A stretch of 64,000 bases of DNA from Lacinutrix sp. 5H-3-7-4. Lineage in GTDB: Bacteria > Bacteroidota > Bacteroidia > Flavobacteriales > Flavobacteriaceae. Within the stretch, counting starts at the first letter, position 1. Every line of letters starts with the position of its first letter. Location of the stretch: assembly GCF_000211855.2 (NCBI RefSeq), contig NC_015638.1, positions 2,329,001 to 2,393,000 of the forward strand, written 5' to 3'. Both the position numbers and the translations under genes were made by a program. The notes beneath the pieces were generated by a model that saw only the letters and a list, made by a program, of their open reading frames with translations, was not told the DNA's origin and did no database searches. Below are positions 32,392 to 52,166 of this stretch, one piece after another.

Positions 32392-32437
32392 TCACTAGAA
32401 ACCGTGAGTTATAATTTTAAAAATAGTCTCAATTTTG
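32392..32437 (+). promoter_or_regulatory. regulon dyad 1 plus -7 box, for the Hcp-like gene
   Basis: TCACTAGAAACCGTGA (32392-32407) followed after exactly 22 bp by CAATTTTG (32430-32437), one mismatch from TAnnTTTG. It is one of seven copies of the pattern TC(A/C)CTRNWWWC(A/C)GTGA - 22 bp - -7 box in the 32-52 kb block. The leader to the start codon would be about 93 nt. Confidence 0.55.
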
Positions 32438-32536
32438 TCGTGTAGCTTAGAAAAAACAGGTTTGTTTTTTTTCCTGAACTTATAATTCAACAAGCTTCAT
32501 AAAACAAAGATTATTTAAAATTATAATAAAAACATT

Positions 32537-32938
32537 ATGCAAGACTCTGAGATAACTAATAGAATTGAATTGGTTTTAAAAAATGACCAAAAAACCCCAA
32601 AAAAATACATACTCAATCAATGTGATTATAACTTTTCACCAAGTTATAATATAGATGATAACAAAGATTTTACAATAGATATTAACCTCACAGGAGGTTT
32701 AATTACAAAGGCAGACGCTTTTTTTATGGAATGGATAAGTAAGAAAAATGGCAAATGGTCTGGTAGCTTAAAGGTTTATAATAGTGATTCTAATGAAGCA
32801 AAAGAAACTTTAGAGTTTGATGAAATTATACCAACAGGATACAATCAAGCTTTTACAGAATACATTGGTAATGTAAATGCAGGATACTTTTATGCTAATT
32901 TAAAAGGCGTAAAACTTATGGATGTAAAGCTTAATTAA
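32537..32938 (+). CDS. Hcp/TssD-like protein (type VI tube family), tentative
   Basis: A 133-residue beta-rich protein resembling the Bacteroidetes TssD/Hcp tube proteins of type VI secretion: the order of motifs CDYNFSPSYNIDDNKDFTID, MEWISKKNGKWSGSLKVYN and KETLEFDEIIPTGYNQAF recalls the family pattern C-x-Y-x-F, EWM, GxxxF and LxFxxAY. Hcp forms hexameric rings, stacks in tubes and also carries effectors. No other T6SS gene is in the window, so it would be an orphan Hcp, or a related domain in a different complex. It is monocistronic, between a regulon-type promoter and a strong terminator at 32961. Family similarity is by eye. Confidence 0.5.
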   Translation: MQDSEITNRIELVLKNDQKTPKKYILNQCDYNFSPSYNIDDNKDFTIDINLTGGLITKADAFFMEWISKKNGKWSGSLKVYNSDSNEAKETLEFDEIIPTGYNQAFTEYIGNVNAGYFYANLKGVKLMDVKLN

Positions 32939-32960
32939 AATTAAACAAAAAAGTATTTAA

Positions 32961-33100: not shown

Positions 33101-33146
33101 TCACTGATTTCAGTGATTTAAAAGAAAATACAACTTATTACCTTTA
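33101..33146 (+). promoter_or_regulatory. regulon dyad 2 plus -7 box, for the lipoprotein at 33166
   Basis: TCACTGATTTCAGTGA (33101-33116) is the best copy of the motif, a perfect TCACTG/CAGTGA dyad with a 4-bp centre. Exactly 22 bp later comes TACCTTTA (33139-33146), one mismatch from TAnnTTTG. The ATG at 33166 is 20 bp further. Confidence 0.6.
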
Positions 33147-33165
33147 TTTTTTTAAGAAATGAATT

Positions 33166-34146
33166 ATGAAATACATAATAATACCAATCGCTCTTTATGC
33201 GTTATTTTTAATTTTATCAGGTTGCTCTAAGTATATTGGTATAACTAAATCACAAGCTAAAAAGAATTTAATAGCTTACTTAGAACGTGATTTTGAAGAC
33301 GATTTAGCTTTTAAAAATTTAAATAGGTTTTTTAATGCAGCAACTATGAATCCAGATATATTTAGTGTATTAATTTACAATAAAGAAATTCCGGAAATAG
33401 AATTTTATGCACACCTTAACCTTAAAACCATATTAGACGATACAGTTTTACCGTTACAAGCTGGAGAACAATTAACTTGTCAAGATTTATACCAAGCCTC
33501 TAAAAAACGTTATAAAGCGAGACAGGCAGTGATAAAAGAGCTGCAGCCCGATTTTGATATACATTTTAATTATAAAGAAATTAATATTTCTCTTAACACG
33601 CAACCAACACCAGATGCTTTAAACAGTATTTTACAACGCTGTGTTAGTATTTTAAATCAATACCATAAAGCATTAGACCATTATAATGATTTTGAAGTTA
33701 CTATTAAAACACCAGAGCAACCAAAAGGTTTTGTTACTTTTACTTTAGAGGACGATAGAGAACAATGGACGCGTTCTCCATTACAATTGTCTAATAATTA
33801 TAGTAATTATAAAAATTTAAAACATCAATTAACAAATTATGCTTTAAACCAAATAGCAACATATAAAACGCCTTATATTTTAGCTGAAAGACAATCTATT
33901 TATATAGATACTAAAACGTTATCGCGAGCAGCTTTAATACAATATTTAGATGATTCTTCTATAGATAACACTAATAATGGACCTTGGATAAACCCGCAAA
34001 AAGGTATTTATATTATTTATTTTGATGTATACTCCAATTTTATTTATAGAGGTGAATTGCTAACAGAAACTAATGATACTTTGGATTACGATGAAACTTT
34101 AGCGCTAATTAAAACAGCTCTTAATACTGAAGGTATACAGTTTTAA
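33166..34146 (+). CDS. uncharacterised lipoprotein in the DUF4132-type block
   Basis: A 326-residue lipoprotein with lipobox ILSGC (Cys20) and no recognised domain. The mature part is helical and charged; notable stretches are YKARQAVIKELQPDFDIHFNY and a C-terminal beta-rich part ending near GPWINPQKGIYIIYFDVYS. It is a single-gene unit, with its own dyad promoter 20 bp upstream and a long inverted repeat downstream, so it is expressed together with the other units of the block but independently of them. It may place the system at the cell envelope; this is inference. Confidence 0.75.
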   Translation: MKYIIIPIALYALFLILSGCSKYIGITKSQAKKNLIAYLERDFEDDLAFKNLNRFFNAATMNPDIFSVLIYNKEIPEIEFYAHLNLKTILDDTVLPLQAGEQLTCQDLYQASKKRYKARQAVIKELQPDFDIHFNYKEINISLNTQPTPDALNSILQRCVSILNQYHKALDHYNDFEVTIKTPEQPKGFVTFTLEDDREQWTRSPLQLSNNYSNYKNLKHQLTNYALNQIATYKTPYILAERQSIYIDTKTLSRAALIQYLDDSSIDNTNNGPWINPQKGIYIIYFDVYSNFIYRGELLTETNDTLDYDETLALIKTALNTEGIQF

Positions 34147-34297: not shown

Positions 34298-36553
34298 TTA
34301 ACTAAAATAGGTTGTGGTTATTTTAGATTTAATTGCTTTTAACAGTTCTGGTTCATTGTTTTCAAAATCTGTATTAGATGTTGTGATTTTTTCTAATATA
34401 TTATGACGACTAAAAAGTACATCTGTTTTAGAAGTTTCAATCCATTTTAAATGTTCTAATAAAGCATCAGTAGAAGGTTCGTCTTTACTCAAAAACATAG
34501 CATTATACTTCGCATGAGCTTTAGTATAACCCAAGGCTTTGGTAATGTTTTTTAAAGTTTGTAACAGCATATGGTTTTGATCCTTTGGGAAATTAAAAAA
34601 GGAGTGCTCTGGGTAACTTTGTAACAAGTGTTTAAAAGCAAGTAGCGCTTGGTCGTACCTTTGTTCTTGATACAATAGATTAGCATATTCATAATCTGTT
34701 TTCCAGTCGCAAGCTTCTGGAGCTTCAGTTTTAATGACTTCGCAAATCTCGATGCTTTTTATGTTATTAAAACCTTCTTTAGCGCAGGCTAAAGCTAATT
34801 TTAAATAATAGGCTTTGTTGTTGGCTAAAGATGCAGCCGCTAGTAAAGCATCTGCTCCTGCATTAGTATTACCTGTCATCCAATAGATTAAGCCATTATT
34901 ACGATAATCTGTAAAAGTAATGGGTTCTGGTATTAAATCTTTGGTAGAGGCTTCAGCAAGATCTTCAGGTTTTTCGTTTAAAAAATCATAAAAACAAATC
35001 CATTGAAACACAGGATATAACTCTGGTGATAAATACTCTTGCTCATGATTATAGATGGCATATTTATAGCATTCTTCATAATCTTCCTTTTCCAAAAGTA
35101 CTTCAATTGCCATATTTATTGTACTGCAATATTCGCTATCACCTTCTGTATAATAGTAGATTTCAGAATTTAGATCTTCAAAAAAACCATCGTAGTTTTG
35201 GTTCATTTTATGAATACTCATGCGTAAATTATAAAACCAAGGCGCATACGATTGTGGTGGTAAAGGAAAACCAGTTAAGGCTTCATTTATAACCACTAAA
35301 GCTTCATCAAACTGTTGTAGTTTAAACAACGCTCGTGCTTTAAAGTAGAGTGTTTTAAGAGTTGGCGGATTTTTAATATGAAATTGTTTTACAATATCTA
35401 AAATACCTTGCCAACTTTCTATTCTACTATTAACTTCTAGTAAATACAATAAATATTCGCTTATTCTAAGTCCGTTTTTAATTGCAGCATGATACATAGC
35501 TCCTGTATCATTATAATTAGCTTCTATAAAAAAAGATTTTGCTTTTAACACATAAAACAATGGGTTGTTAGGGTTTAAAGTTAAACCTTGAGCCACAACT
35601 TGCTCTAAAATCGTTTTATTTTTGGTGTAATAATACGCAGCATTTCCTAACAAAACATAACTGTGTTGAGCTTGTTGCCAACCAGAATTAATAAAGGCAT
35701 TTATATGGTTTTGATAGCCTTTAAAAGTTGTGTAATCATTTTCTGGAAATTGTGGCGTAGCAGGAACTTTTATAATTTGTGATACCATCTCATACAGCAT
35801 AAAAGCTTTGGCGTAATCTGCTAATAAGAATTTTGTGTTATTTGATAAGTCTAATAATGACCATTCTGTTTTCCATTGTTTTAAATTGTTAGCAGTCTTG
35901 TTTTCCCATAAAGCAACTTGTATATGTGCTAAATTTAAACTGGTTTGGTCTAAACGTTCATCTAACTGTAAGCCTTTTAAAACCTCCAAATTATGTGTAG
36001 AAGAAGCTAATTCTAATAGCTGATAGCAATCTGATTCTTGATTGGATTGACAAAGAATTTCTAATTGAATAGCTTCAATATCCCTTAATAAAAATCTAGC
36101 TTCGGTTAGAGCAGGATAACATTCTAAAATGTATTTTAAAATGGTGATAGCTTCATCAAAACGTTGTTCTTCTTTAAGCTTTAAGGCATAGTGAATGTGT
36201 AAACTCTCGTTGTATGGATACAATATTAATGCCTTTTGGTAGATGTGCTCTTCACACTGTGTGTAAAAGCTGCAAACGTATTCAAAATCTGAAGCTTGAG
36301 CTTCATTTATGTTTACTAAAGCACTTAAATACGATTGTAAAGCAGGCATGTTTATTTGTTCAAAAGCACTAATGTATAACATATAAAGCCTGTAATATCT
36401 AGCATAATCTGCTGCTTCCGTAAGGCGTTCTAAATGCTCCTTTATAAAATTAATAGCAGTATGTAAAGCAGTATACTGGTTCGTTTGGTATAGCTTTTCA
36501 GCACGCTCTATTTGTTTTATAATAACCTGTGTTGAGATGTTTGTTACAGCCAT
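34298..36553 (-). CDS. large TPR-like helical repeat protein
   Basis: A 751-residue, almost entirely helical cytoplasmic protein. Repeated paired helices of the tetratricopeptide kind are visible, e.g. LHIHYALKLKEEQRFDEAITILKY cut in two (residues near 127-150), PTLKTLYFKARALFKLQQFD, and ANLLYQEQRYDQALLAFKHL. Such proteins act as scaffolds. It is the last gene of a four-gene minus-strand operon that begins at 40804 and overlaps its upstream neighbour by 10 bp. A scaffold role for the SMI1-like and DUF1266-like partners is inferred. No enzyme motif found. Confidence 0.72.
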   Translation of the reverse strand: MAVTNISTQVIIKQIERAEKLYQTNQYTALHTAINFIKEHLERLTEAADYARYYRLYMLYISAFEQINMPALQSYLSALVNINEAQASDFEYVCSFYTQCEEHIYQKALILYPYNESLHIHYALKLKEEQRFDEAITILKYILECYPALTEARFLLRDIEAIQLEILCQSNQESDCYQLLELASSTHNLEVLKGLQLDERLDQTSLNLAHIQVALWENKTANNLKQWKTEWSLLDLSNNTKFLLADYAKAFMLYEMVSQIIKVPATPQFPENDYTTFKGYQNHINAFINSGWQQAQHSYVLLGNAAYYYTKNKTILEQVVAQGLTLNPNNPLFYVLKAKSFFIEANYNDTGAMYHAAIKNGLRISEYLLYLLEVNSRIESWQGILDIVKQFHIKNPPTLKTLYFKARALFKLQQFDEALVVINEALTGFPLPPQSYAPWFYNLRMSIHKMNQNYDGFFEDLNSEIYYYTEGDSEYCSTINMAIEVLLEKEDYEECYKYAIYNHEQEYLSPELYPVFQWICFYDFLNEKPEDLAEASTKDLIPEPITFTDYRNNGLIYWMTGNTNAGADALLAAASLANNKAYYLKLALACAKEGFNNIKSIEICEVIKTEAPEACDWKTDYEYANLLYQEQRYDQALLAFKHLLQSYPEHSFFNFPKDQNHMLLQTLKNITKALGYTKAHAKYNAMFLSKDEPSTDALLEHLKWIETSKTDVLFSRHNILEKITTSNTDFENNEPELLKAIKSKITTTYFS

Positions 36554-37200
36554 GTTTTAAATCCGTTTTTGTGTTCTATATGTAATCTTTGGTAGACTTC
36601 CCAAAGTGTTTCTGTTCCTGGAAATTTACTAATATCTTGTTCTGTTGGGCCTGTAACCAACTCGTAACCTATACAAACGTTATTATGAAAGGCTTCCCAA
36701 CTAGAAAAATTAGATTTTATAATATTACAAGCATCTTCTAAACGTAAAGCAATTTCGTTAGTAGTAATAAAATTTAATACCAAACCTAAACGCATTTGGA
36801 AAATATACATTGCCATATCGTAACCTATAAGTTTTTGGTTTTTTAAGCTGAAACGATACTTCCACACTAATTTATAAAGTTGTTGGTTTTTTGGATTTTC
36901 TTCGGCATTATATTTAGCCTCAAAAGTTGTAGTAGTATCCATTCGCAATTGGGAAGCTAAGGTTTCAAAGGTTTTTGAAGCCATTTGTCCGTTTTCATAA
37001 CGGTGTAAACTGTTACGTAAATGTAATCCAGATTTTATGCCATATAAGTTTAAAAGTCTTTTGGCTTGTTGGATGTGTAAATCGTTTGATATGTCAAAAC
37101 CCGACCAACTATAAAGGTCTGCTTTTTTATAATTTTTTTTCAAAATCAAAGCCGATAAATTAAGTTGATCTTGAATTTTTGGAGTGATAGTGTCTGTCAT
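36544..37200 (-). CDS. DUF1266-like protein
   Basis: A 218-residue helical protein that resembles DUF1266 proteins: an N-terminal helical part, then the family-like W-xx-Y/F pattern around LYKLVWKYRFSLKNQKLIGYDMAMYIFQ, a central RLGL helix, and the region SNFSSWEAFHNNVCIGYELV near residue 170. DUF1266 has no established function; members often stand near SMI1/KNR4 and toxin-immunity genes. It is third in the minus operon, 4 bp downstream of the 823-residue gene and 10 bp overlapping with the TPR-like gene. The domain assignment is by eye and moderate. Confidence 0.6.
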   Translation of the reverse strand: MTDTITPKIQDQLNLSALILKKNYKKADLYSWSGFDISNDLHIQQAKRLLNLYGIKSGLHLRNSLHRYENGQMASKTFETLASQLRMDTTTTFEAKYNAEENPKNQQLYKLVWKYRFSLKNQKLIGYDMAMYIFQMRLGLVLNFITTNEIALRLEDACNIIKSNFSSWEAFHNNVCIGYELVTGPTEQDISKFPGTETLWEVYQRLHIEHKNGFKTWL

Positions 37201-37204
37201 TGTC

Positions 37205-39676
37205 TTAAGCGTTTAATTGAATTATCACTTGTGATACTGTTTTTGATACATGGTCTGGAAAAGCTCCAGATTTTATCATGGTTTTTAGTCCCATAGCATA
37301 CGAACTTGCCATTTTAGTGTCTTTTACTAATTCAACAAATAAGGTTTGGCAATGGGTATTAAATGTTGATAGCGCTGGATTGGAAGCTAATTCTGCATCC
37401 AATATCACACTGTAAAGTGCCTGAGTAAATCTAGAATCTGAATGAGTTTTATCATCCTCAAGCCAAGTTTTTAGTGTTGTTATATTTTCGACTAAAAAAG
37501 ATAAAGACTCCGTATCGTAGGTTTTAAGTCGTGTATAATTTTCAAGATTTGAAAGCACATAACTTATAAACTTGTGATTAATCTCTTTAGGTTGTAAAAT
37601 TACTTGAGACGTTGATGGTGTATTTAAACTGTTAGTTGTTGCTGTATTTTGGTTAAAGAAAGCGTCGTTAAACGTACTAATAATTGTATTTAATTGGTTT
37701 TTAGAGGTAAAAGCATTACTTGTATCTGTATCGTATTTAACTAATTGTGTCACAGTTTTTGCACTAAGTTTAGTATGCTTTAAAGCACCAAGAAAATCAA
37801 CTAAAAACACTTCTATTTCTTCCCAAACGTCATTTGAGGCAACTGAGTTATGTGCTGTTTTTTTGCTTTTTTGGTGAATAGAAACTAAACGTTTTATGGT
37901 TTTATCTAAAAAGTAGCTAACATCATCCTCTACAGCATTAAAAAAGTTTGCAGTGCGCACACCTTGTGTCGTTAGCATAGCTTTAGTCCAAACGGCTTCT
38001 TGTTTAAAACTGTAATAATAATCTAACAAATAATTAAACCAAGCTTGTATTAGATTAAGTGTTAGCGGATTGTCTTGGTTTAGATAATGTTTACCAGCAA
38101 ACGCGTTACAAAGGTCTGTAACACATGGATTAATATCTTTTAGCGCCCAAATTTGGTTTACACGTGTATAATTACCAGCATCTCTACATAATACAGTTAG
38201 TGTTTTAACAATATAAGGTAGGTTTTTTGTGGTGATAGCTTCAGTTGTTTTTGTAGCTGAATATGCCATATTTAGCAAATACAGTTGTAAGGTCTCTTGT
38301 TGTTCTAGAGTATAGCAATTAAACAATTCTTGATTGGCATCATAAAACATGCGTACCAAAAACTGATTTAAAGGGTTAACTATACCAGAGGCTTCAAAAC
38401 CTTTTAAAAAAGCATCTAAGTTATTAGTGTTTTGAAACACGTGTGTGATTAAAAAAGATCCTGTAAGTTTAAATGTTTCATTTTGGTAACGCATACTTGG
38501 TAATGCGTTTTGATTATCATCAAGTAATAATTTTGAAAAGATAGCATTATAGGTCTCGGTTTGATTTTTTATTCCTGATTTTGGATGACAGGTATTAAAC
38601 CAAAAAGCAAGACTTGTTAAAGGTAAAACAGAAGCTGTAGCTTCGTTTAATAAGGGTTTTGCAAAATCTGTAAAAACCTCGGTATTGTAATTTGGTCGGT
38701 GCTGTAGCCATGCTATTAGATGTTGATAGCAACTATCTAGTTGGTTTTGTGGTATGGCTTTTTCACGATTGTTAAATAAAATAACATCACCAGAATCCCA
38801 TAGTTTTGTGCTTAGCGCATTAATTAATGGATAGTTATTTTGGTTTGTTTTTATGTTTAATAGCGCTGTACTTTTAACTTCACCAAAAATCCAACGCTCT
38901 TTTATAGCTTGATGTGCCTTATGGCAGGCTAATGGATTATTTAAATAATAATCTGCTAAATCACTTGTAAACCAAGACGACACGACATTGTAAACATCTG
39001 GTTGGTATACCTTGCCAACAGGTAGTATATTATGAAATGCATTAATAAATTCCTGCCAGTTGCCATTAAAAAAATGTGTGATAAATGTGTCGTTAATTTT
39101 AAATGGATACGTTTGTATTGCTTCCTTATTTTGAATTACAGTGTACGAATCATTTAAAATATTATAATCCAAACAACACTGTACCAAAAAGTTTAAATTT
39201 AAAACATTGGTAAGATCAAAAAGACTATCTATTAAAAAACGGGAAATAATTAAAGAGGCTTCCGATTTACTTTTTACCAGCAATGTTATAATTTCAAAAA
39301 ATGAATCAATAATAGTTTGTTCACACTGTTCTGATTGAAAATAATTTAAATTGAATTTAAAAAAGCGAATAAATAATTCGGTACTTTTTTTATCAGGAAA
39401 AAAACCTTGTTTTACTAACGGAAGCCAAGCCAAAACAAAGTCTGTACCTTGTTGTGTATTACTATATAATTTAGGGTAATAGTAAATGTTTTGTGCCAAT
39501 GTATTTGTAAAAGTAGCATTTAAATTATTTAAACGCCTGTTTTTTATCTCCTTATAAACCTTAGCATCAGTTATATCTAAAAGTTCTAAAATTGTAATTA
39601 ATGTATATTGTTCTGTTGCATCTAATGTTTTTAGATTGATATTAGGTAGTACTTCTGTTTTAAATATTGAAGACAT
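37205..39676 (-). CDS. very large helical protein of unknown function
   Basis: An 823-residue protein, helical throughout, without a signal peptide, nucleotide-binding motif or metal site that I can see. It reads like an alpha-solenoid (repeated hydrophobic helices such as LYLLNMAYSATKTTEAITTK and LIQAWFNYLLDYYYSFKQE). It is the second gene of the minus-strand operon: 66 bp after the SMI1-like gene and 4 bp before the DUF1266-like gene. I do not recognise a family. Likely a scaffold or large partner of the DUF4132 protein, which is inference. Confidence 0.68.
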   Translation of the reverse strand: MSSIFKTEVLPNINLKTLDATEQYTLITILELLDITDAKVYKEIKNRRLNNLNATFTNTLAQNIYYYPKLYSNTQQGTDFVLAWLPLVKQGFFPDKKSTELFIRFFKFNLNYFQSEQCEQTIIDSFFEIITLLVKSKSEASLIISRFLIDSLFDLTNVLNLNFLVQCCLDYNILNDSYTVIQNKEAIQTYPFKINDTFITHFFNGNWQEFINAFHNILPVGKVYQPDVYNVVSSWFTSDLADYYLNNPLACHKAHQAIKERWIFGEVKSTALLNIKTNQNNYPLINALSTKLWDSGDVILFNNREKAIPQNQLDSCYQHLIAWLQHRPNYNTEVFTDFAKPLLNEATASVLPLTSLAFWFNTCHPKSGIKNQTETYNAIFSKLLLDDNQNALPSMRYQNETFKLTGSFLITHVFQNTNNLDAFLKGFEASGIVNPLNQFLVRMFYDANQELFNCYTLEQQETLQLYLLNMAYSATKTTEAITTKNLPYIVKTLTVLCRDAGNYTRVNQIWALKDINPCVTDLCNAFAGKHYLNQDNPLTLNLIQAWFNYLLDYYYSFKQEAVWTKAMLTTQGVRTANFFNAVEDDVSYFLDKTIKRLVSIHQKSKKTAHNSVASNDVWEEIEVFLVDFLGALKHTKLSAKTVTQLVKYDTDTSNAFTSKNQLNTIISTFNDAFFNQNTATTNSLNTPSTSQVILQPKEINHKFISYVLSNLENYTRLKTYDTESLSFLVENITTLKTWLEDDKTHSDSRFTQALYSVILDAELASNPALSTFNTHCQTLFVELVKDTKMASSYAMGLKTMIKSGAFPDHVSKTVSQVIIQLNA

Positions 39677-39742: not shown

Positions 39743-40804
39743 TTAGGCTGTGTATAACCACTCAAAATCTTCGATATCAGTTTGGTCATTAGCAAGGTTT
39801 AATAAAAAACTGTTTAAGTTTTTATCTTGTATGTAACCAATCTCTTGATCTGCACCAAACTTTATAATTTGACCTGGAGTACCTTTTGTGTTTGGCGCAA
39901 AATCTATAGCTAGAAAATTTCCGTTTTGTAAATCGAAAAACGGAATCCAATAAGGTGTAGTGTACATTAGTAAGGCTTTACCTTGGTTTGTACTGTAGTT
40001 ATCTAATAATTCATCTTGTGTCCAATCGTCGTAAATTTCTTTCCAGTTGGTCCATTCAGATACTATAGCTTCAGCAGACATAAAAGCGGTGTTTTTAATA
40101 CCGTTGTGTAGACTTAAAAATGATTTTAAAATTTCAGGAAAATCAAAGCCAGCTTTATTTTTAAAAGCCTCATAAACAGTAGTGTTATCTTTTGGCGGTG
40201 AAATGGTTAAGTTTTTTTTCTCAACTAAGGTGTCAAAACTAGCTTTAATATTGTTAGAATTATACGTAACGTTTAATGTGATATAAGGTGATAAAAATTC
40301 TGTTTTCTCATTACCAAGTTGTTCTGCTATAAATTGATTAGGAATAAAATGCGCTATAAAAGCACCTGTATTGTCTTCAAAATTTAGTGTTTTTAAATTG
40401 CTTATAGGTTGGCTACTATAGTTGCTATTACTAAACTCATAAATTAAGGATACTGGATTATTATAATTGTTCTCATCATCATCGCGAATAGTAGTAGCAA
40501 ACCAAGTTTCAAAAGCAGGTGTGTTTTCAAAAATTACAGTAAAAACAATTTTACCATCTAAATAAGCAACACCGTAATAATCGTTTATAGATGAATAATT
40601 AGGTGTAATTAATACTAATTTATAAACCTCTTTTTTAGTTATTAATTTAATAGCTTCAAGTAGTGTGTCTCTAAAAATAAAACAGTTACTGTAATGGTCA
40701 GGATCGTTAAGTTCAGGAAATGTATTTATTGTTATTGTGTTAAAATTAAAATCACTTCTTTTAAAATCACTAAATCCTTTTAAATAAGGTTTGCTATTAT
40801 TCAT
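39743..40804 (-). CDS. SMI1/KNR4-like protein
   Basis: A 353-residue protein whose C-terminal half (about residues 200-353) fits the SMI1/KNR4 (SUKH) family: FPEILKSFLSLHNGIKN, the Trp-rich region WIPFFDLQNGNFLAIDFAPN, then GQIIKFGADQEIG and a final helix. SUKH proteins are often immunity proteins or organisers of complexes. I start it at the ATG at 40804, not at the longer ATG at 40888: the segment between carries a regulon dyad and a -7 box (40827-40872), so the shorter form is the transcribed one. It heads the four-gene minus operon. Confidence 0.75.
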   Translation of the reverse strand: MNNSKPYLKGFSDFKRSDFNFNTITINTFPELNDPDHYSNCFIFRDTLLEAIKLITKKEVYKLVLITPNYSSINDYYGVAYLDGKIVFTVIFENTPAFETWFATTIRDDDENNYNNPVSLIYEFSNSNYSSQPISNLKTLNFEDNTGAFIAHFIPNQFIAEQLGNEKTEFLSPYITLNVTYNSNNIKASFDTLVEKKNLTISPPKDNTTVYEAFKNKAGFDFPEILKSFLSLHNGIKNTAFMSAEAIVSEWTNWKEIYDDWTQDELLDNYSTNQGKALLMYTTPYWIPFFDLQNGNFLAIDFAPNTKGTPGQIIKFGADQEIGYIQDKNLNSFLLNLANDQTDIEDFEWLYTA

Positions 40805-40826: not shown

Positions 40827-40872
40827 CTAAAGTACTTTACTAACTGCGATTTTTTATCCCTGAAAGTAGGGA
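40827..40872 (-). promoter_or_regulatory. regulon dyad 3 plus -7 box, for the minus-strand SMI1-like operon
   Basis: Read on the minus strand, TCCCTACTTTCAGGGA (40872 to 40857) is followed after exactly 22 bp by TACTTTAG (40834 to 40827), one mismatch from TAnnTTTG. The ATG at 40804 is 22 bp further. The element is inside the longer ORF and so decides the start. Confidence 0.6.
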
Positions 40873-43278: not shown

Positions 43279-43293
43279 TAAGCAATTAAAACT

Positions 43294-43719: not shown

Positions 43720-43749
43720 TGTTTCAATAAAATTATTACAAAAAAAGTT

Positions 43750-44277: not shown

Positions 44278-44281
44278 ACAC

Positions 44282-44791: not shown

Positions 44792-44810
44792 AGTATTAAA
44801 GAGTTAAAAT

Positions 44811-45239
44811 ATGAATAAAGATTTAATCGTAGAAAACGTTAATCTGGCTGAGAATTTATTTACAAAACACTATAGCAATTTTATTAAAGAAAAACCAAGA
44901 ACAGTTACTGTTGAAGATGAGGATTTTAAATTATTTAGTTTTGAGGAAATGATTACTCTTACAACTATAGATGGAATGGAAGTTAGTAAAGTTAGAGCCT
45001 TAAAAGCGTATGTAAATACTTTAAAAAGCATTTTAGGACCAACAGTATCCGATCAAAAAGGAAAACAGTGGTCTATGTTAATGTTATCTGCAAGTATTAC
45101 TATTGGTAAAAATACAGAAGGTGATTTGTTGTTTATTGATAGGCATGATGGTAAAACGCTTTATATTTTTCGTCATGATGATGGCAGTTTATTTAAAACT
45201 AAAATGACGGTGTCTAAATTAATTAAAGCCTATTCTTAG
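44811..45239 (+). CDS. protein of unknown function, last gene of the 42007 operon
   Basis: A 142-residue cytoplasmic protein, with mixed helices and strands (VNLAENLFTKHYSNFIKEK, then GKQWSMLMLSASITIGKNTE and LLFIDRHDGKTLYIFRHDDG). The repeated DRHDG/RHDDG may bind metal or just be turns. No family recognised. As the gene next to the endonuclease V-like one it could be a partner or an inhibitor; that is only inference. A bidirectional terminator follows at 45263. Confidence 0.6.
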   Translation: MNKDLIVENVNLAENLFTKHYSNFIKEKPRTVTVEDEDFKLFSFEEMITLTTIDGMEVSKVRALKAYVNTLKSILGPTVSDQKGKQWSMLMLSASITIGKNTEGDLLFIDRHDGKTLYIFRHDDGSLFKTKMTVSKLIKAYS

Positions 45240-45352: not shown

Positions 45353-45727
45353 TTAAGCAGACAAACTGTTTATTGCTTCCATTTTATTTAAAATTATAGG
45401 CACAAATAGAGCAAATTTTGCGTTGAATTCTTCTTGTGTTTTAGAAGTGTTTAAATTTTTACCCATAATCATCCAGGTATTAAATAGCGCTTCTTCTTGA
45501 TTTTGTGTTTCGGTATCAATATTTAAAGACTTTATTAGCATGAAATTATCATCATGATTATAAAAACCTGTAGTACTTACAATCTCAAAAACAAGTTCAA
45601 AGATACTTCTGGTGTCTAATAATTCGTTAATTTTTATTTCAGTTTCTTTAGATGCGCTTATAGCATCAAAAACGTCTACCATTAAGTTTTGTACTCTGGC
45701 ATTAGTACTAAAGTCTAAATATTTCAA
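45353..45727 (-). CDS. small helical protein of unknown function
   Basis: A 124-residue helical protein (VQNLMVDVFDAISASKETEIKINELL cut in parts, then NTWMIMGKNLN), without motif, signal or membrane segment. No family recognised. It is second in a two-gene minus-strand unit, 45 bp after the gene ending at 45773, and driven by dyad 6 at 46425. Role unknown; it may be a partner of that neighbour. Confidence 0.55.
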   Translation of the reverse strand: MKYLDFSTNARVQNLMVDVFDAISASKETEIKINELLDTRSIFELVFEIVSTTGFYNHDDNFMLIKSLNIDTETQNQEEALFNTWMIMGKNLNTSKTQEEFNAKFALFVPIILNKMEAINSLSA

Positions 45728-45772
45728 AATCTTATAATTTATAAATTAAAGCGAATTGTTGCTACTATTGTT

Positions 45773-46399
45773 TTATTGTTGATTTAAAGGTACATGTCCT
45801 ACAATACTTCCGTTTTTTACAACAAATAAAATGTTGGCAATTGGTGCATTACCATAACTGTCGTCATTCCAAGTATGATTATGTAAAAAAATAAATTTAT
45901 TTAGTAAAGCTTTATCTGCATCATTAGCTATAACCATCATACATGAGCGTCTTGGTATTGAAACTAAAAGTGTTTCTGCATCAAGTAAACTATGCGCTTT
46001 TAACATGTGCGATTTACTCAAAATGCGTTCGCTTGAAAAACTTGGCCCACTAGAAGTTAGTACTTGATTTTGGAAGGCTTCAGAAATTTCAAACTCAGTA
46101 GTATAGTTTTCTAAGTTTTCAAAAGCTTCCTTTGTAATTTGCTTAGCATCCATGGTTTCTAAATGCTGCTTTGTTAAAAACACAAAGTTTTCTGGTGTAT
46201 CCATACCGTAACCAACAACAACGCCATGAGCTTCACCTTCGGCAGGAATTAATGTAGAGCTTAATGCTCCTGCTTTTAAACCAACCCAATTGCTAGGTTT
46301 TAAAATAGGATATATTTTTTGATCGCTATTTTTAGTTTGTTCTACTATTTGTTCTATTTCTTCTGGTGTTTTTTCTGGACCGTGAATGGTATTACTCAT
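45773..46399 (-). CDS. DUF1444-like protein, tentative
   Basis: A 208-residue cytoplasmic protein that faintly resembles the YtpQ/DUF1444 group (VGYGMDTPENFVFLTKQHLE, then SLLDAETLLVSIPRRSCMMVI and KALLNKFIFLHNHTWND). No catalytic motif seen. It is the first gene of a minus-strand unit whose ATG lies 26 bp after a -7 box preceded by a regulon dyad. The similarity is weak, so the name is only a pointer. Confidence 0.55.
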   Translation of the reverse strand: MSNTIHGPEKTPEEIEQIVEQTKNSDQKIYPILKPSNWVGLKAGALSSTLIPAEGEAHGVVVGYGMDTPENFVFLTKQHLETMDAKQITKEAFENLENYTTEFEISEAFQNQVLTSSGPSFSSERILSKSHMLKAHSLLDAETLLVSIPRRSCMMVIANDADKALLNKFIFLHNHTWNDDSYGNAPIANILFVVKNGSIVGHVPLNQQ

Positions 46400-46424: not shown

Positions 46425-46470
46425 CAAAATTATTGAAGAAATTAATTTTTTTTATCACGGTATTCAGCCA
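46425..46470 (-). promoter_or_regulatory. regulon dyad 6 plus -7 box, for the 46399 unit
   Basis: Read on the minus strand, TGGCTGAATACCGTGA (46470 to 46455) is followed after exactly 22 bp by TAATTTTG (46432 to 46425), a full match to TAnnTTTG. The left arm is the most diverged of the seven, while the right arm and box are intact. Confidence 0.55.
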
Positions 46471-46521: not shown

Positions 46522-46935
46522 TTACCAATATGTGCCTACTAAAAATGTGAGTCTTATAAAGGCAATCACACTATTAGATGTTAAGTTTAAAGGCGTTGAT
46601 AAATCGGTTATTTCTTCATCATCCACAAAAACCACAAACAATCCATCTTTAAATGCTAACAATATATTGTTTATTGCATCTTGTTGGTTAGCTAGTGTTT
46701 TATTATAAATTTCTCCAAAATCTACTTTACCATTTTGTGCTTGTTCTTCTATTTGCGATGGACTTAAAAAACCCACTACGTTTACTTCTAACCGTTTGTT
46801 ATTAAATGCTTCTACTTGTTGTTTTACACAAGTAATTAATAAGTGCTCTAACGTTTTAGGTGTTTCGTCTAGCGTAAACTGTACTTGTTTTACTTTTTTC
46901 TTACCAAGTTTTTTTAATTGTAACTGGAGTTCCAT
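46522..46935 (-). CDS. small partner gene of the DUF4132 gene
   Basis: A 137-residue mixed alpha/beta protein. The ends are beta-rich (LQLKKLGKKKVKQVQFTL and VVFVDDEEITDLSTPL), while the middle is helical. The final strand SNSVIAFIRLTFLVGTYW is hydrophobic but short of a membrane segment. No family recognised. It is read from the same strand as the DUF4132 gene, 115 bp downstream of its stop, and the GC-rich repeat at 46951-47039 lies in that gap. It probably shares the DUF4132 promoter (dyad 7), and is a likely small partner (inference). Confidence 0.6.
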   Translation of the reverse strand: MELQLQLKKLGKKKVKQVQFTLDETPKTLEHLLITCVKQQVEAFNNKRLEVNVVGFLSPSQIEEQAQNGKVDFGEIYNKTLANQQDAINNILLAFKDGLFVVFVDDEEITDLSTPLNLTSNSVIAFIRLTFLVGTYW

Positions 46936-46950
46936 GGTTTGCTGTGTTTT

Positions 46951-47039
46951 GCGTTAGCGATTGTCGTGGAAAGCCCACAGTGCGATAGCGCGAGGACTTG
47001 TAACAGAAAGCGCGACCTTGCCTAAGCAAGGTAACGCCC
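46951..47039. repeat. GC-rich dispersed intergenic repeat
   Basis: An 89-bp element, far more GC-rich than its surroundings, between two minus-strand genes. It starts GCGTTAGCG and ends GGTAACGCCC, so the ends are short inverted repeats (GCGTTA/TAACGC). It has an internal hairpin, CCTTGCCTAAGCAAGG (47016-47031). I recall similar elements beginning GGGCGTTACC and ending CTAACGC in intergenic DNA of many flavobacteria, so a non-autonomous dispersed repeat is likely. Only one copy is in this window. Confidence 0.6.
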
Positions 47040-47050
47040 TAATGTTATTA

Positions 47051-50000
47051 TTAACTATTAATTTGAGCCAAAATGGTTGGATCTTGGATTTTATTGTCTT
47101 CTGAAAGTAGTTTCATTTTAGAAATAATTTCGGCAGATTTTGGATCTTCATCAACAAAAGGTAAAAATAGTCGTCCACGATGTTGACTGTGTACCGGAAT
47201 TATAGATAAAGCCAATCCGTTTTTGCTTACTTGACCACTACCTAAATGAATACTATAATCGCCAAGAGTTCCTTTTATAAAAATATGTCGCTCTTTTACA
47301 GTACTATTTTTAAGCTTAAATAATTGCGCTGATGCTTGAGCTAATGCACCACGCATTTGCATGGTACTGTGGCTGGCTTCTGGATCTACACCACCAACAT
47401 GAGCAACACTAACAACAAGGTCGATGTCTCGCATGATTTCGCTAAAAATTACTGATGGAATCTCTGTTAACGGAATTGTTTTATAAGTATCTATAGAGTG
47501 AAAACGAATGTCTTCTAGTGTTGGAGCTTCACTGTCTGATGGTGAAAACCAATCTGCCATAGCATACATTGTGGCTATAAAACCGTGTTTATGATATACT
47601 TTTTGCAAACCATCTTCCATGCTAACTGTCCAACCACGACCACGTAATAATGCTACCGTTTTTTTAGGTTGAATTTGGTGTCCTTGGTAACGCTCTGAAT
47701 GATTATTAAGTTCACGCTCATTATCTGTAATTAAATATAATTCTCTAAACACTTGCTTAAACGGTTGTGTTATACGCTCTGCAAACAAATACTTTTGATA
47801 TAAATCCCATGTAACGTCTTGATATAAATGTGAAGCATGTGCGATAAGTAAAATATCATCTTGTTCTAATTGGTAAGAGGCTCCAGTGGCATTGGTTAAA
47901 AAGCCGTTATTATAAAAACCTGAAACTTCCTTTTCTGGAATACATAATATTAGATTTTGCAACATGGCTTTAACAATAGGATGTTGCATTAAATTATGAA
48001 TTTCGGGAGCTGTAAATTCATCTTCATTTACCATCGCATTTTCAAGCGATAAGCGTGTGCGACTGTATTGTTTAGACAAGTAGTTTTTGTTTTCTTTTAA
48101 GGTAATAACCTGCTTGTCTTTACGCAATTTAGCAGGAATATTTTTTAAAGTTTTACCAGCTTTAGTCACTATAATATTTGCTTTTCCAAGTGCTGTAATT
48201 GTGAGTTTTAAAGTGGTATTATCTATAGCAACTGTAGCATTCTCCATGATGGCTTGCGTGGCTTTGGCTTCCATTGCCCAGCTAAAACGTACGCGATCTT
48301 TATAACCTGCATTTCGTGACAAATTATCTAAAGCGATATCTACTGCTATAGCTTCACTTTCTTGTCGTTGTGCACCAAACTGTTTGCTTTCTTTTAAAAA
48401 GGTTTGTAATAGGTTGTAACGTTTTAATAAATCTTTTTGTGGTACAGTTTTACTTAATGGTATTAGTCCTAAAGCACGCACGTAATCTTTATCGCGTTTG
48501 TCTTTAATTTTTTTTAAGGTTTCTGTTATTTTAACTTCACCTAGCATTACACTAGAATACAGTTTTACTTGCCTGTGGCCATTACCATCTGTTATATATT
48601 TGGCAGCATCATGAAGTAGTTTCCAGTTCGCTTTTCCTAAGTTTTTATAAACTTTATTAAACCAGTCTATATCTATTGCTCCCAATGCAAAATCACTTTT
48701 TGGTATATTAGAATAGCGAGAAATAATGGTTTCTTTTTCGCTATTCATATAATCTGATGCATGTGCCTGGAACCACCATACAGCATTTTCTAAGTTATCT
48801 ATTTTTAAATAATCTCCAACAACACCAGCCCATTGTGTGGCATAACAAGCGAGCTCGATAAGACGTTTTTTACTAACTTTTGAAGTGTTTGCAAGTGTAG
48901 CAAAATCTATATAAGACTCTGTGTCTTTAAAGGTTGTTTTTTTTAGTAGAGCACTAAATTTAGATTTTTTACTATCACCATAATAACTATAACCGCGTTC
49001 GAAATTGTCTTTACCTAAGCGTTCTAAAATTCTAAATACATAACTAACACCTTCTACTTTATGTATACTATTTACATAATTTGAAGCAGGCGTTGCAAGA
49101 TCTCCACGTTCTAATTCGGTTTCTAACAAATTGGTTTTTAAAGGAAGAAATACCTGATTAGAAATCATGTTACGTTCTATGCCTTTTTTGTAATTCATTC
49201 TATAATTAAAGCCACCATCAATAATGGTCATTAATTCTGCTGAATGTAATGCTTGAAACAATAAGTCATCATCATTTATTAAACCTTGTTGGTAGAGTTT
49301 GATAGTAATTTCAATTTCAGGAAAATTAATTTTATCTCTAGAATCGCTATTGCTAATTAAGGCTGTTTTATCTGTTACATCATTAGGATGCGCAATATTA
49401 TTAGCCGCCAAATACATACGTATACACCAATATTTATACATTTGTTTAGTAGTTAATCGCTCTAAAAAATCTAAACTAAAATGTGGTGTAGATTGTAATA
49501 CAATTGTGGTCCAATTATATGTAACAGTATTAAAGTATCTGCTATTATCTTGAAATTGTGTTAGTTTAAACTTTTTAGGAAAATTAGCAATCATATCTTC
49601 AAATAAATTGAATTTAAAATCGCTTATTGTTTTTGTATCTGCAAAAGCATTAAACAAACGTTTTAAAATTTTGCTATAGATTTTAGATTTTGAGTAGTAA
49701 TTTTTTTCAGTATCTAAATGCAATCCAGACAAATCAGGATAATATTGTTTTAAATAAGGTTCAAGAGCTGTGTAAGCTCCAAAAGGTGCATGACGATTGT
49801 TGATGTAACGTATTGCAGTATACATTTCAAAATCATTAAGCTTGCTGCTTTCATACCATTCAATCCAAAGTGAAGCTAGTGGTAAGCTATTTAAATAATC
49901 TAAAGCAGTTGCGGTATCTCCTAATTTTTTAGTATCGTGTATCCCTTTTTCAAGGTAAGTGGTTTGTGTAGCACCAGTATAATGTGCTGCTTGGTATTCA

Positions 50001-52054
50001 TGATTGTGGTTTTTAGTTACTAATGCAATTAATTGGTTTACCTGAGTTACAATTTTATTAGCGTCTATAAAATCACTAAACTTAAAACCAGTCGATGCAG
50101 AACTTAATATACCTAATTTATCTAAAAAGCTTGTGTTGCTTTTAAAATGAGATTGCGGTGTATAAAGCGGTGATAAATTATTATAATTAACAACACCAAA
50201 ACCATTACTAAAATTATACTCTTGAGCTTTGTTAAAGTATTTATCTAAATAAACTTGCTCGTTTTTAGTAATATTAGCACGTTTAGAGTAGTTTTTAAAG
50301 TGTTTTTCTACAAAATCTGTTTGTCTGTTTTTTTCGTGTAACAATAATAATATTTCTAGGCCTGCAATACGTTGGCTAATAATTTTTGAGCTTACTAAAT
50401 TGGTAGTGCTGGATTGTAAACGATCTTGAGGAAATGAGATTATTAACTTGATTAAATTAGTACGTAAACCTTTATTTTTTCGTCTTAATAAATCTTCAGC
50501 AATAGCTATGTCTGTATCAAAAAGTGGCATACAATTAAATAGTTTAAGAGCAGTTGCCATAACTAGTTCGTTTCTATTATAAATAGCACGTCTCACTAAA
50601 GCTCTTTTCCAAGAATTTTCGTCAAAGTTTACAGGATCTTTTTTATGAGTTTCTTTATTATTATAATACAGAGAATAACTGTAATGTTTTGGGAATACTT
50701 TTCTAATATATTCTTCTCTGTACTCTGTTGGGAAATCTTCAAAATCATTAGCCATTAATTCTAGCTGCTCGGTTGTTGCGCTATAAATTAAAAACCTAAA
50801 AAAATGTGTTGGGCCAGGCGTAAAATGCCACCATGAAAAAATATTGCTTTGGTAGGTTTTTCCTTTTTTGGTTACATTTTTTGCAACATCAAGTAACTTT
50901 AAAAATGTGTCGTTATCTAAAGTGGTTTCAGGTAAATTTATAGATATCCAGTGGTCAAGTGCATAATCTTTTCCTAAATGCTCAATAAAATAAGGCACTA
51001 AAGCATCGTTTGTTCTATCGGTTTGATAAATAAAATATAATGCTAGAATTTTTTTATTCCTGTCTTCGTTTTCAAAAACAATATCAAGTGCTTTTCTATT
51101 TGCTGTATCAACATCTAAAATACCAATTGCCCATAAGCCTACTAATACCTCAATATTGTCTTTGCTTTTAAGATAGGTGTCAACCTGTTTTAAATTTAAA
51201 ATTAAAGACTGCGCCAGTGTCAATATTCTGTTTATAACTGCTTTTTTAGGGTTTTCCCATCGTAAACCAAACCAAGTACAAACAGCTCTATTTATACTTG
51301 TAAATCGAGCTAAGTCATTATCTATTACAATTTTTATGATATGCTTTAACGCACCAAGACTTGCAAAATCTAATGCTTCTAAAATAGTTTGCCTCAAACC
51401 TTCTTGACGTTGTGCTGCAAGTAATAGTTTGGCAACCATATCCCAATGTTTTTCATCCTCAGAAAGTAATAATGCTTGAATAAAAGCAGCACTTATGCCT
51501 CCAATTTCATCTTCTCCTTGAATGATATCGTCTAATAAAGTATCAAACATACCATCTGCATTATGTAATACTGTGGCTAAAAAATAGCTGTTTGCATGAG
51601 GGTAATATACGCTGTATTGAAAATGCTCTTGTAGGCTTAACCCATTAAAACCTTTGCGACTATAGGTTAAAAACTGAGTGAATATTTTCAACTTATTTTT
51701 TAAAATATCTTTGTTTGGTTTTGCTCTAAACGCTTGCTTACTATAGCCAGTTTGGTAAGGTATAGTGTTTAAAAAATCCCACATAGCTGTAAGATATGGC
51801 GCTTGAACAATACCATATAATTGTACGGCAAGGCGCATGCCTTCTGGATTAGACCACGGATTAATTGTAATTGGATTATTAAAGGCTTCTATAAAATCGC
51901 TTGTGTTATAATAAACACGTTCCTCTTTTTCTATACCTCCTAGTATTTTGGCTAACACTCTGTAAGGAGTAGAAAAATGAGAAAAGTCAAACCTATCTAT
52001 TTCTGGTTTTTGATGTTTTTTTATATGTTTATGTGCGACTTCTACCGGAATCAT
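47051..52054 (-). CDS. DUF4132 domain protein (MolR-like), 1667 residues
   Basis: A giant cytoplasmic protein. The N-terminal 1100 residues are a helical solenoid with HEAT-like regularity. Residues about 1150-1350 include RALGLIPLSK and a helical part, followed by a beta segment (NTTLKLTITALGKANI). Residues about 1400-1580 are the DUF4132 domain: the typical ITQPFKQVFRELYLITDNER and LLRGRGWTVS, then YHKHGFIATMYAMADWF. The end, with MRDIDLVVSVAHVGGVDPEAS and SIHLGSGQVSKNG, matches the domain usual after DUF4132. It lacks the WGR domain of the E. coli relative (yehI/molR region). DUF4132 function is not established. It is driven by dyad 7 and followed by the small partner gene at 46522. Confidence 0.82.
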   Translation of the reverse strand: MIPVEVAHKHIKKHQKPEIDRFDFSHFSTPYRVLAKILGGIEKEERVYYNTSDFIEAFNNPITINPWSNPEGMRLAVQLYGIVQAPYLTAMWDFLNTIPYQTGYSKQAFRAKPNKDILKNKLKIFTQFLTYSRKGFNGLSLQEHFQYSVYYPHANSYFLATVLHNADGMFDTLLDDIIQGEDEIGGISAAFIQALLLSEDEKHWDMVAKLLLAAQRQEGLRQTILEALDFASLGALKHIIKIVIDNDLARFTSINRAVCTWFGLRWENPKKAVINRILTLAQSLILNLKQVDTYLKSKDNIEVLVGLWAIGILDVDTANRKALDIVFENEDRNKKILALYFIYQTDRTNDALVPYFIEHLGKDYALDHWISINLPETTLDNDTFLKLLDVAKNVTKKGKTYQSNIFSWWHFTPGPTHFFRFLIYSATTEQLELMANDFEDFPTEYREEYIRKVFPKHYSYSLYYNNKETHKKDPVNFDENSWKRALVRRAIYNRNELVMATALKLFNCMPLFDTDIAIAEDLLRRKNKGLRTNLIKLIISFPQDRLQSSTTNLVSSKIISQRIAGLEILLLLHEKNRQTDFVEKHFKNYSKRANITKNEQVYLDKYFNKAQEYNFSNGFGVVNYNNLSPLYTPQSHFKSNTSFLDKLGILSSASTGFKFSDFIDANKIVTQVNQLIALVTKNHNHEYQAAHYTGATQTTYLEKGIHDTKKLGDTATALDYLNSLPLASLWIEWYESSKLNDFEMYTAIRYINNRHAPFGAYTALEPYLKQYYPDLSGLHLDTEKNYYSKSKIYSKILKRLFNAFADTKTISDFKFNLFEDMIANFPKKFKLTQFQDNSRYFNTVTYNWTTIVLQSTPHFSLDFLERLTTKQMYKYWCIRMYLAANNIAHPNDVTDKTALISNSDSRDKINFPEIEITIKLYQQGLINDDDLLFQALHSAELMTIIDGGFNYRMNYKKGIERNMISNQVFLPLKTNLLETELERGDLATPASNYVNSIHKVEGVSYVFRILERLGKDNFERGYSYYGDSKKSKFSALLKKTTFKDTESYIDFATLANTSKVSKKRLIELACYATQWAGVVGDYLKIDNLENAVWWFQAHASDYMNSEKETIISRYSNIPKSDFALGAIDIDWFNKVYKNLGKANWKLLHDAAKYITDGNGHRQVKLYSSVMLGEVKITETLKKIKDKRDKDYVRALGLIPLSKTVPQKDLLKRYNLLQTFLKESKQFGAQRQESEAIAVDIALDNLSRNAGYKDRVRFSWAMEAKATQAIMENATVAIDNTTLKLTITALGKANIIVTKAGKTLKNIPAKLRKDKQVITLKENKNYLSKQYSRTRLSLENAMVNEDEFTAPEIHNLMQHPIVKAMLQNLILCIPEKEVSGFYNNGFLTNATGASYQLEQDDILLIAHASHLYQDVTWDLYQKYLFAERITQPFKQVFRELYLITDNERELNNHSERYQGHQIQPKKTVALLRGRGWTVSMEDGLQKVYHKHGFIATMYAMADWFSPSDSEAPTLEDIRFHSIDTYKTIPLTEIPSVIFSEIMRDIDLVVSVAHVGGVDPEASHSTMQMRGALAQASAQLFKLKNSTVKERHIFIKGTLGDYSIHLGSGQVSKNGLALSIIPVHSQHRGRLFLPFVDEDPKSAEIISKMKLLSEDNKIQDPTILAQINS

Positions 52055-52120
52055 ATTACAATGTTTTTATAAAATTAGAGCTTTTATTTAACCGTTTTAA
52101 TAAGCATTAAATAATAGAAA

Positions 52121-52166
52121 GCAAGATACTAGTAATAATGATTTTTGTTCTCACTGTTTATAGTGA
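52121..52166 (-). promoter_or_regulatory. regulon dyad 7 plus -7 box, for the DUF4132 gene
   Basis: Read on the minus strand, TCACTATAAACAGTGA (52166 to 52151) is followed after exactly 22 bp by TATCTTGC (52128 to 52121), a weaker match to TAnnTTTG. The ATG at 52054 is 67 bp further on. Confidence 0.5.

What the first reader, a model, noticed from the sequence alone, without database searches (positions are those of the whole stretch)
32392..52166. One 16-bp dyad at a fixed 22-bp distance from the -7 box precedes every promoter of a 20-kb block
The copies are at 32392, 33101, 40857 (minus), 40908, 41923, 46455 (minus) and 52151 (minus). They fit TC(A/C)CTRNWWWC(A/C)GTGA, with positions 1, 4, 5, 13, 15 and 16 invariant in all seven. 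Each is followed, after exactly 22 bp in all seven, by a TAnnTTTG-like box (two exact, most others with one mismatch), 20 to 100 bp before a start codon. The dyad is therefore centred near -41, where class II activators bind. It serves all transcription units I can define between 32.3 and 52.2 kb, in both directions, and none seen outside. I know of no published regulon with this operator. It implies that sixteen genes, most uncharacterised, act together.
Basis: partly seen in the sequence, partly recalled or inferred. Interest (0 to 1): 0.88.

Follow-up and report, generated by a model that had tools for sequence, protein, structure and literature searches.

The report
Conserved activator operator of uncharacterised island
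Seven near-identical DNA palindromes sit at exactly the same distance from the promoter box in front of every operon of a 20-kb block of mostly unknown genes, and such palindromes at that distance precede the same genes in related marine bacteria, next to a sensor pair that probably switches the block on and that this genome seems to have lost.

Summary
All seven dyads exist, each exactly 22 bp before a TAnnTTTG-like -7 box. Of five exact genome-wide matches to TCMCTRNNNNYMGTGA, four lie in this block and one inside an ORF. The block recurs in Flavobacteriaceae; in 22 loci examined afterwards, 74 of 81 promoter dyads have the box at 22 bp, against a background of 1.2% per offset. Against Olleya sediminilitoris, dyads are 82% and boxes 92% identical, spacers 49%. 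The likely binder is a NarL/LiaR-type response regulator encoded with a TPR histidine kinase inside 23 of 24 named loci. No close copy was found in this genome (best 41%). That paralogue, about 83 kb beyond the window, has dyad-N22-TACATTTG before its kinase gene, and its family has such dyads in 13 of 20 other loci. Best reading: regulator dimers at about -42.5 activate sigma-A promoters of an inducible system that includes an orphan Hcp-like protein; here the paralogous pair has probably taken over. Binding, activation and function are inferred.

The parts
32392..32407 (+). Dyad TCACTAGAAACCGTGA, box CAATTTTG at 32430-32437, serves the Hcp/TssD-like gene
   Evidence: orthologous site before TssD in the Olleya sediminilitoris genome (G397); in most other relatives read the dyad precedes the 229-aa gene just upstream of TssD
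33101..33116 (+). Perfect dyad TCACTGATTTCAGTGA, box TACCTTTA at 33139-33146, serves the 326-aa lipoprotein-like gene
   Evidence: dyad and box identical in G397 while the spacer matches at 4 of 22
40857..40872 (-). Dyad TCCCTACTTTCAGGGA, box TACTTTAG at 40827-40834, serves the SUKH/823-aa/DUF1266/TPR operon
40908..40923 (+). Dyad TCACTGAATATGGCGA (weak), box TATTTTTA at 40946-40953, serves the DUF6892 gene; 51 bp from its divergent partner
   Evidence: below the matrix threshold
41923..41938 (+). Dyad TCCCTATTTTCAGTGA, box TAATTTTG at 41961-41968, serves the 42007-45239 operon
46455..46470 (-). Dyad TGGCTGAATACCGTGA, box TAATTTTG at 46425-46432, serves the 208-aa gene
   Evidence: identical dyad at 22 bp before its orthologue in G014
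52151..52166 (-). Dyad TCACTATAAACAGTGA, box TATCTTGC at 52121-52128, serves the DUF5724/DUF4132 operon
   Evidence: TANCTTGC box at 22 bp also before this gene in G346, G100, G329, G014, G257, G236; below the matrix threshold
32537..32938 (+). Hcp/TssD-like protein (133 aa)
   Evidence: PF17642 just below its cut-off; predicted fold (pLDDT 76) matches Hcp1 of F. johnsoniae best
33166..34146 (+). 326-aa lipoprotein-like gene, conserved in the block
34298..36553 (-). TPR protein (751 aa)
36544..37200 (-). DUF1266 protein (218 aa), block marker used for the named-genome search
37205..39676 (-). 823-aa protein without Pfam match
39743..40804 (-). SUKH-domain protein, start placed at the ATG giving 353 aa
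40974..41879 (+). DUF7738/DUF6892 protein (301 aa)
42007..45239 (+). Operon of five genes (423-aa protein with weak beta-propeller match, DUF2262, 175 aa, endonuclease V-like, 142 aa)
45353..46399 (-). Two small genes (208 and 124 aa)
46522..52054 (-). DUF5724/DUF4132/DUF7737 giant (1667 aa) and a 137-aa protein with a ubiquitin-like-looking model

Best explanation
The dyads are operators for a NarL/LiaR-type response regulator. A dimer of the phosphorylated regulator binds AAWA-TCAC(T/G)GNNNNC(A/C)GTGA at -50 to -35, replacing the -33 contact of the housekeeping sigma factor, and switches on sigma-A promoters with a TAnnTTTG box exactly 22 bp downstream (class II activation). In most relatives the regulator and its TPR histidine kinase are encoded in the block, mostly downstream of the SUKH-to-TPR genes whose promoter has the same operator, which would give positive feedback. 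In this genome that pair has been lost; the most likely controller is the paralogous TPR kinase/regulator pair at C1:2476458-2479215, whose own promoter carries a related operator and an exact box. Shown: motif, spacing, conservation, co-occurrence, absence of a close regulator. Inferred: binding, phosphorylation, activation, take-over by the paralogue.
For: Fixed 22-bp geometry: 74 of 81 dyads in 22 loci looked at after the motif was set, and 24 of 52 oriented dyads in the window plus six first relatives, at most 3 at any other offset from 8 to 45. Selection: dyad 79/96, box 44/48, spacer 65/132 identical to G397. Regulator: a GerE-domain RR at 78% identity or more was found in 6 of 397 family genomes, the next listed being 48% or less; all six have the block; it lies in 23 of 24 named block loci. 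Operator at the regulators: dyad-N22-TACATTTG before the detached block TCS of G346, before the paralogous TCS here and before its counterparts in G294 and G397. Of nine LuxR-type HTH matches in this genome I scanned the loci of five; only that one has dyad plus box. Paralogue family: 21 dyads in 41.6 kb of promoter windows, 2 in 211 kb elsewhere, 13 of 20 loci (windows set); two of five exact dyads in seven block-free genomes lie 2.1-2.5 kb upstream of such an RR. Solved relatives of the paralogue include VraR, RcsB and DesR; LiaR of S. mutans also uses a 16-bp inverted repeat with an A4 stretch upstream (PMC4447274, passages), and here A stands 4 and 3 bp before the dyad in 68 and 65 of 74 sites.
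Against: No binding, transcript or phosphorylation data. The TCS found here is only 41% identical to the block RR, its recognition helix differs (SKHTIESYRKN against SVNTVETHRKN), and its own operator has 2 mismatches; take-over rests on operator resemblance. 7 of 20 paralogue loci show no dyad at the stringency used. Of 13 exact TCACKGNNNNCMGTGA places in seven block genomes, 10 are in the block or beside its TCS, one precedes a second Hcp-like gene and two lie elsewhere. G297 keeps DUF5724 and a tssD-like match with an in-frame stop, with one weak dyad at 23 bp and no close block RR. Joostella (L144) lacks the TCS in its 20-kb locus, though its genome has a 78% copy on another contig. The scan of G397 found no site for its DUF5724 gene at the threshold used. 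One search scored only the 7 best of 44 candidates in this genome, so absence of a close regulator rests on that ranking. The loci are related, so counts are not independent.
Confidence: 0.65

Rival explanations
1. The operators are vestiges: the lineage lost its kinase/regulator pair recently, nothing reads the dyads now, and the block is silent or constitutive.
For: The block regulator was not found in this near-complete single-contig genome (best 41%) though present in the nearest relative found (88%). Window dyads at 40908 and 52151 fall below the matrix threshold.
Against: All seven keep exact 22-bp geometry and five keep strong scores; the paralogous TCS carries a related operator and an exact box.
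Confidence: 0.25
2. A different factor, such as a one-component repressor or an unrecognised protein of the block, binds the dyad.
For: The block has several proteins without a family match, and a dyad next to the core promoter could also be a repressor site.
Against: Among the block proteins scanned, none but the RR has a transcription-factor domain match above cut-off. Dyads also stand in promoter windows of paralogous TCS loci in other genomes. The site sits where the -33 element would be, as an activator site does.
Confidence: 0.12
3. The right half (GTGA) is the -33 element of an alternative sigma factor and the palindrome is incidental.
For: Constant spacing to the -7 box is also what a two-part promoter shows; the DUF5724 promoters have a TANCTTGC box that fits the TAnnTTGY class of F. 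psychrophilum (PMC9723704 passages).
Against: Several sites are perfect palindromes, the box is otherwise the sigma-A type, and in relatives one dyad faces two divergent genes with boxes at 22 and 48 bp.
Confidence: 0.04
4. Chance or a dispersed repeat.
For: At one mismatch the dyad alone is no commoner than the reversed control.
Against: Cluster of exact sites, fixed spacing, conservation at orthologous genes with diverged spacers.
Confidence: 0.01

Closest known systems
LiaR/VraR/CesR-type (NarL family) response-regulator regulons of Firmicutes
   Same: Receiver plus LuxR-type HTH; 16-bp inverted repeat with an A stretch on one side (LiaR of S. mutans, PMC4447274 passages)
   Different: Different half-site from the CesR motif quoted there (TCAGHCTnnAGDCTGA), other phylum and promoter class; kinase has N-terminal TPRs; the -7 box lies at a rigid 22 bp; target genes here are of other families
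Flavobacterial sigma-A promoters with the TAnnTTTG -7 box
   Same: Box sequence (PMC9723704 passages)
   Different: A palindromic operator occupies the region where a -33 element is expected
Type VI secretion subtype iii Hcp (TssD)
   Same: Predicted Hcp fold, best match Hcp1 of F. johnsoniae
   Different: Four of seven full-block genomes have no TssC match; no T6SS core family was matched by other block genes
DUF4132/MolR-like giants
   Same: DUF4132 domain; annotated relatives in Deinococcus and Bacteroides
   Different: In what I saw, the papers that name the domain describe neither this cluster nor this operator (listing; one passage of PMC8533742)

Membership tests
NarL/LiaR-type response-regulator regulon | Receiver plus GerE (LuxR-type) HTH regulator linked to the operators | tested here: met
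   PF00072 and PF00196 in the block RR and the paralogue here; linkage
NarL/LiaR-type response-regulator regulon | Cognate histidine kinase next to the regulator | tested here: met
   HisKA_3 and HATPase_c with TPRs
NarL/LiaR-type response-regulator regulon | Close block regulator present in this genome | tested here: not met
   Best match 41% at C1:2478582 (7 of 44 candidates scored); no match in the window; 151 bp between the genes that flank it in relatives
NarL/LiaR-type response-regulator regulon | Regulator binds the inverted repeat when phosphorylated | not testable with these tools
   Needs EMSA or footprinting
Class II activator-dependent promoter | Site overlapping the -35/-33 region, centred near -41.5 to -42.5 | tested here: met
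   22-bp spacing in 7 of 7 window sites and 74 of 81 later ones; centre -42.5 if the box is at -12 to -5
Class II activator-dependent promoter | Transcription starts 5-8 bp after the box and depends on the activator | not testable with these tools
   No transcript data held
Type VI secretion system iii | Core genes such as TssC with the block | tested here: not met
   TssC in G000 (117 kb beyond the window), G236, G346, G297; no match in G014, G100, G257, G329
Known anti-phage defence system (PADLOC-DB) | Match of block proteins to a defence model | tested here: not met
   0 of 10 proteins matched: 8 of the 16 window genes and 2 from a relative

The most novel reading that the evidence does not exclude
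An island of unknown function that includes an orphan Hcp-like protein, a DUF4132 giant and a putative ubiquitin-like partner is a new inducible apparatus of marine Flavobacteriaceae under one dedicated two-component system, and the window's lineage is a natural rewiring: the dedicated system was deleted and its operators were captured by the paralogous housekeeping system that uses a like dyad and the same spacing.
Probability: 0.35. Interest if true: 0.78.

Novelty: new member of a known kind. Interest (0 to 1): 0.62.

Why it matters
It gives a sequence-defined, testable activator operator for Flavobacteriaceae; it ties about sixteen mostly unnamed genes into one unit found in nine named genera; and it offers a natural case of a regulon that kept its operators after losing its regulator, next to relatives that still have it.

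Tried and rejected
The response regulator inside the window (30275-30940), just upstream of the block, was the first candidate. It was dropped: it has no GerE match, its relatives occur in 189 of 397 family genomes against 7 of 397 for the Hcp-like gene, and it is only about 25% identical to the block regulator. Four other LuxR-type regulator loci scanned here (L124-L127) have no dyad with box at the threshold used; four further HTH matches were not scanned.

A defence-system or T6SS reading of the block was tested and not supported. Rfam and tRNA scans of the window were empty. NCBIfam gave two matches far below cut-off for 10 proteins; phmmer against the PDB found nothing for the DUF6892 and DUF5724 proteins. 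The eLife paper on NTP-dependent conflict systems (PMC7159879) holds none of six terms searched in its text. Further own-genome regulon members were not resolved: 34 of 42 hits at two mismatches lie outside the block, one of them before the paralogous kinase, against 22 control hits.
Full report
CHECK OF THE OBSERVATION. Mismatches of the box to TAnnTTTG are 1,1,1,1,0,0,2 in the order of the finding; that box with at most one mismatch occurs at 1.3% of window positions. In the whole 3.3-Mb genome TCMCTRNNNNYMGTGA has five exact places, four in the block and one inside a 175-aa ORF. With N22-TAnnTT and at most one mismatch there are six places, five in the block. At looser settings the signal is diluted: dyad alone with one mismatch, 38+37 against 31+39 for the reversed control; spaced pattern with up to two mismatches, 42 against 22, eight of them in the block.

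THE BLOCK IS CONSERVED, WITH ITS OPERATORS. The Hcp-like gene at 32537 has relatives in 7 of 397 family genomes, the window's own included. Five of those genomes (G014, G100, G257, G329, G346) share most of the block, G297 a remnant; G236, found through the regulator, has the block without a TssD hit. Orthologous genes carry dyads such as TCACGGAATTCCGTGA at the same distance from the box. Among 52 oriented dyads from the window and six relatives, 24 have YAnnTTTG (at most one mismatch) at offset 22, 17 exactly; no other offset from 8 to 45 exceeds 3. These 52 count both directions of divergent intergenic regions, so part of them cannot be expected to have the box.

LATER TEST. A scan of named genomes with the DUF1266 alignment returned 24 loci: Winogradskyella, Mesonia, Formosa, Olleya, Maribacter, Leeuwenhoekiella, Salegentibacter, Joostella, Flavobacterium frigidarium. 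In the other 22 loci, dyads within one mismatch of TCMCKRNNNNYMGKGA number 84 between genes and 10 within genes; the base counts, over all 24 loci, are 63.5 kb intergenic and 432 kb coding. Of 81 distinct dyads 30-170 bp before an ORF (42 of them facing two genes), 74 have the box at 22 bp in at least one direction; the background rate is 62 of 5043 offsets, 1.2%. The loci are related to each other and some may be near copies of genomes already used (L147 shares a promoter with G236), so the count is not a sample of independent events. Against the nearest relative found, Olleya sediminilitoris (G397), six orthologous promoters keep 79 of 96 dyad bases and 44 of 48 box bases but 65 of 132 spacer bases (shuffled spacers: mean 42); the seventh, before DUF5724, was not found in G397 at the threshold used.

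FINER ANATOMY. Divergent promoters often carry two dyads 50-51 bp apart, one for each direction (window 40857/40908; G014 twice, G346, G236 and six named loci); exceptions are L153 with 40 bp, L140 with 73, G329 with 77 and G100 with 79 bp. In the named loci a second peak of 18 boxes, 17 exact, lies at 48 bp; 17 of the 18 face the 131-aa gene, which shares one dyad with the lipoprotein gene. A stands 4 bp and 3 bp before the dyad in 68 and 65 of 74 sites, and the seven window sites have A-rich 5' flanks. The DUF5724 promoter keeps a TANCTTGC box in the window and six relatives, which fits the TAnnTTGY class described for F. psychrophilum (PMC9723704, passages).

THE REGULATOR. Inside the block most relatives read encode a TPR histidine kinase (HisKA_3, HATPase_c) and a response regulator with receiver and GerE domains. 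The regulator at 78% identity or more is found in 6 of 397 family genomes, all with the block; the next listed are 48% or less. It lies within 23 of 24 named loci; the 24th genome (Joostella) has a 78% copy on another contig. In the window's genome the best match is 41%, at C1:2478582 (7 of 44 candidates scored), and 151 bp separate the two genes that flank the pair in most relatives. That 41% protein is a paralogue with its own TPR kinase. Upstream of its kinase stands CCATTGTTTTCAGTGA-N22-TACATTTG-CGC-ATG. The G294 (same genus) and G397 counterparts have TCCCTGTTTTCGGGGA and ACCCTGTTTTCAGGGA, each N22 before TACATTTG. In 20 paralogue loci, chosen by me from the non-block hits listed, 21 dyads lie in 41.6 kb of promoter windows and 2 in the other 211 kb; the windows were set; 13 of 20 loci have at least one, and 12 of the 21 dyads have an exact YAnnTTTG 46 bp downstream. 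In L122 a second dyad 24 bp downstream sits at 22 bp, so tandem sites may be the rule there. In seven block-free genomes, two of five exact TCACKGNNNNCMGTGA places are 2.1-2.5 kb upstream of such regulators; in the seven block genomes 10 of 13 are in the block or beside its TCS, one precedes a second Hcp-like gene, two lie elsewhere. Of nine LuxR-type HTH matches in this genome I scanned five loci; only this one has dyad plus box.

HOW IT PROBABLY WORKS. With the box at -12 to -5 the dyad spans -50 to -35, centre -42.5. A dimeric NarL/LiaR-type regulator there would touch region 4 of sigma and make up for a missing -33 element: class II activation (inference). Solved relatives of the paralogue by sequence include VraR, RcsB and DesR. 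LiaR of S. mutans needs a 25-bp site made of a 16-bp inverted repeat and an A4 stretch (PMC4447274, passages), which resembles the A-flanked dyad here; the half-sites differ. In most relatives the regulator genes follow the SUKH-to-TPR genes on the same strand, so the loop is probably self-reinforcing; in the window it is broken. Whether the paralogue drives the block here or the operators are vestigial is open; I favour the paralogue because its own promoter has a like operator, the same spacing and an exact box, and all seven sites keep the geometry.

WHAT THE BLOCK MAY BE. Products: Hcp-like protein (PF17642 just under cut-off; predicted fold, best hit F. johnsoniae Hcp1), TPR, DUF1266, SUKH, DUF6892/DUF7738, DUF2262, endonuclease V-like, DUF5724/DUF4132/DUF7737; in most relatives also an adenylosuccinate-synthetase-like protein not seen in the two Olleya loci or the window. 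A T6SS is not required: TssC was not found in four of the seven full-block genomes. The 137-aa partner of the giant gives a model of moderate confidence (pLDDT 78.6) whose top matches include ubiquitin-like and MoaD-like proteins, none below E 0.04. No PADLOC match among 10 proteins, 8 of them from the window. Function stays open; an inducible stress or conflict apparatus is my guess.

COMPARISON WITH WHAT IS KNOWN. Regulation by a NarL-family regulator at a class II position is a known kind. The operator, its 22-bp rule and the regulon I did not find in print in searches of an open-access library; most subscription papers are not in it.

On recounting against the calls I added exceptions and caveats (dyad distances, capped scoring, five of nine HTH loci, post hoc windows, G397 DUF5724 site) and lowered the main confidence from 0.66 to 0.65 for the capped scoring.

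Noticed in passing
window 1-27196: Gene cluster with ketoacyl synthases, FabA-like, MMPL and acyltransferase proteins and an AMP-binding enzyme, resembling a flexirubin/aryl-polyene cluster (that label is recalled); a LacI-type regulator follows at 27243..
   Followed up: no
window 28380-30940: TPR kinase-like protein and a divergent response regulator without a GerE match; the regulator family is in 189 of 397 family genomes. Not the block regulator..
   Followed up: partly
window 53603-63041: Type I restriction-modification genes (R, M, S) interleaved with two GmrSD-like genes (one with DUF7834), right beside the block..
   Followed up: partly
window 52121-52128: The DUF5724 promoter has a TATCTTGC box, conserved as TANCTTGC in six relatives; it fits the TAnnTTGY class of F. 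psychrophilum, so the giant may use another sigma factor..
   Followed up: partly
window 46522-46935: The 137-aa partner of the DUF4132 giant gives a moderate-confidence model resembling ubiquitin-like proteins (E 0.04 and worse)..
   Followed up: partly
L104-L123: A paralogous TPR kinase/LuxR-type regulator family with palindromes such as CCCCTGAAAACAGGGG, box at 46 bp for 12 of 21 dyads (22 plus 24, perhaps tandem), in several loci followed by a similar 139-aa membrane-like protein..
   Followed up: partly
L039 1501-1863 (G100): A second Hcp-like gene far from the block has the exact dyad TCACTGTTTTCAGTGA upstream, with GATTTTTG at 22 bp..
   Followed up: no
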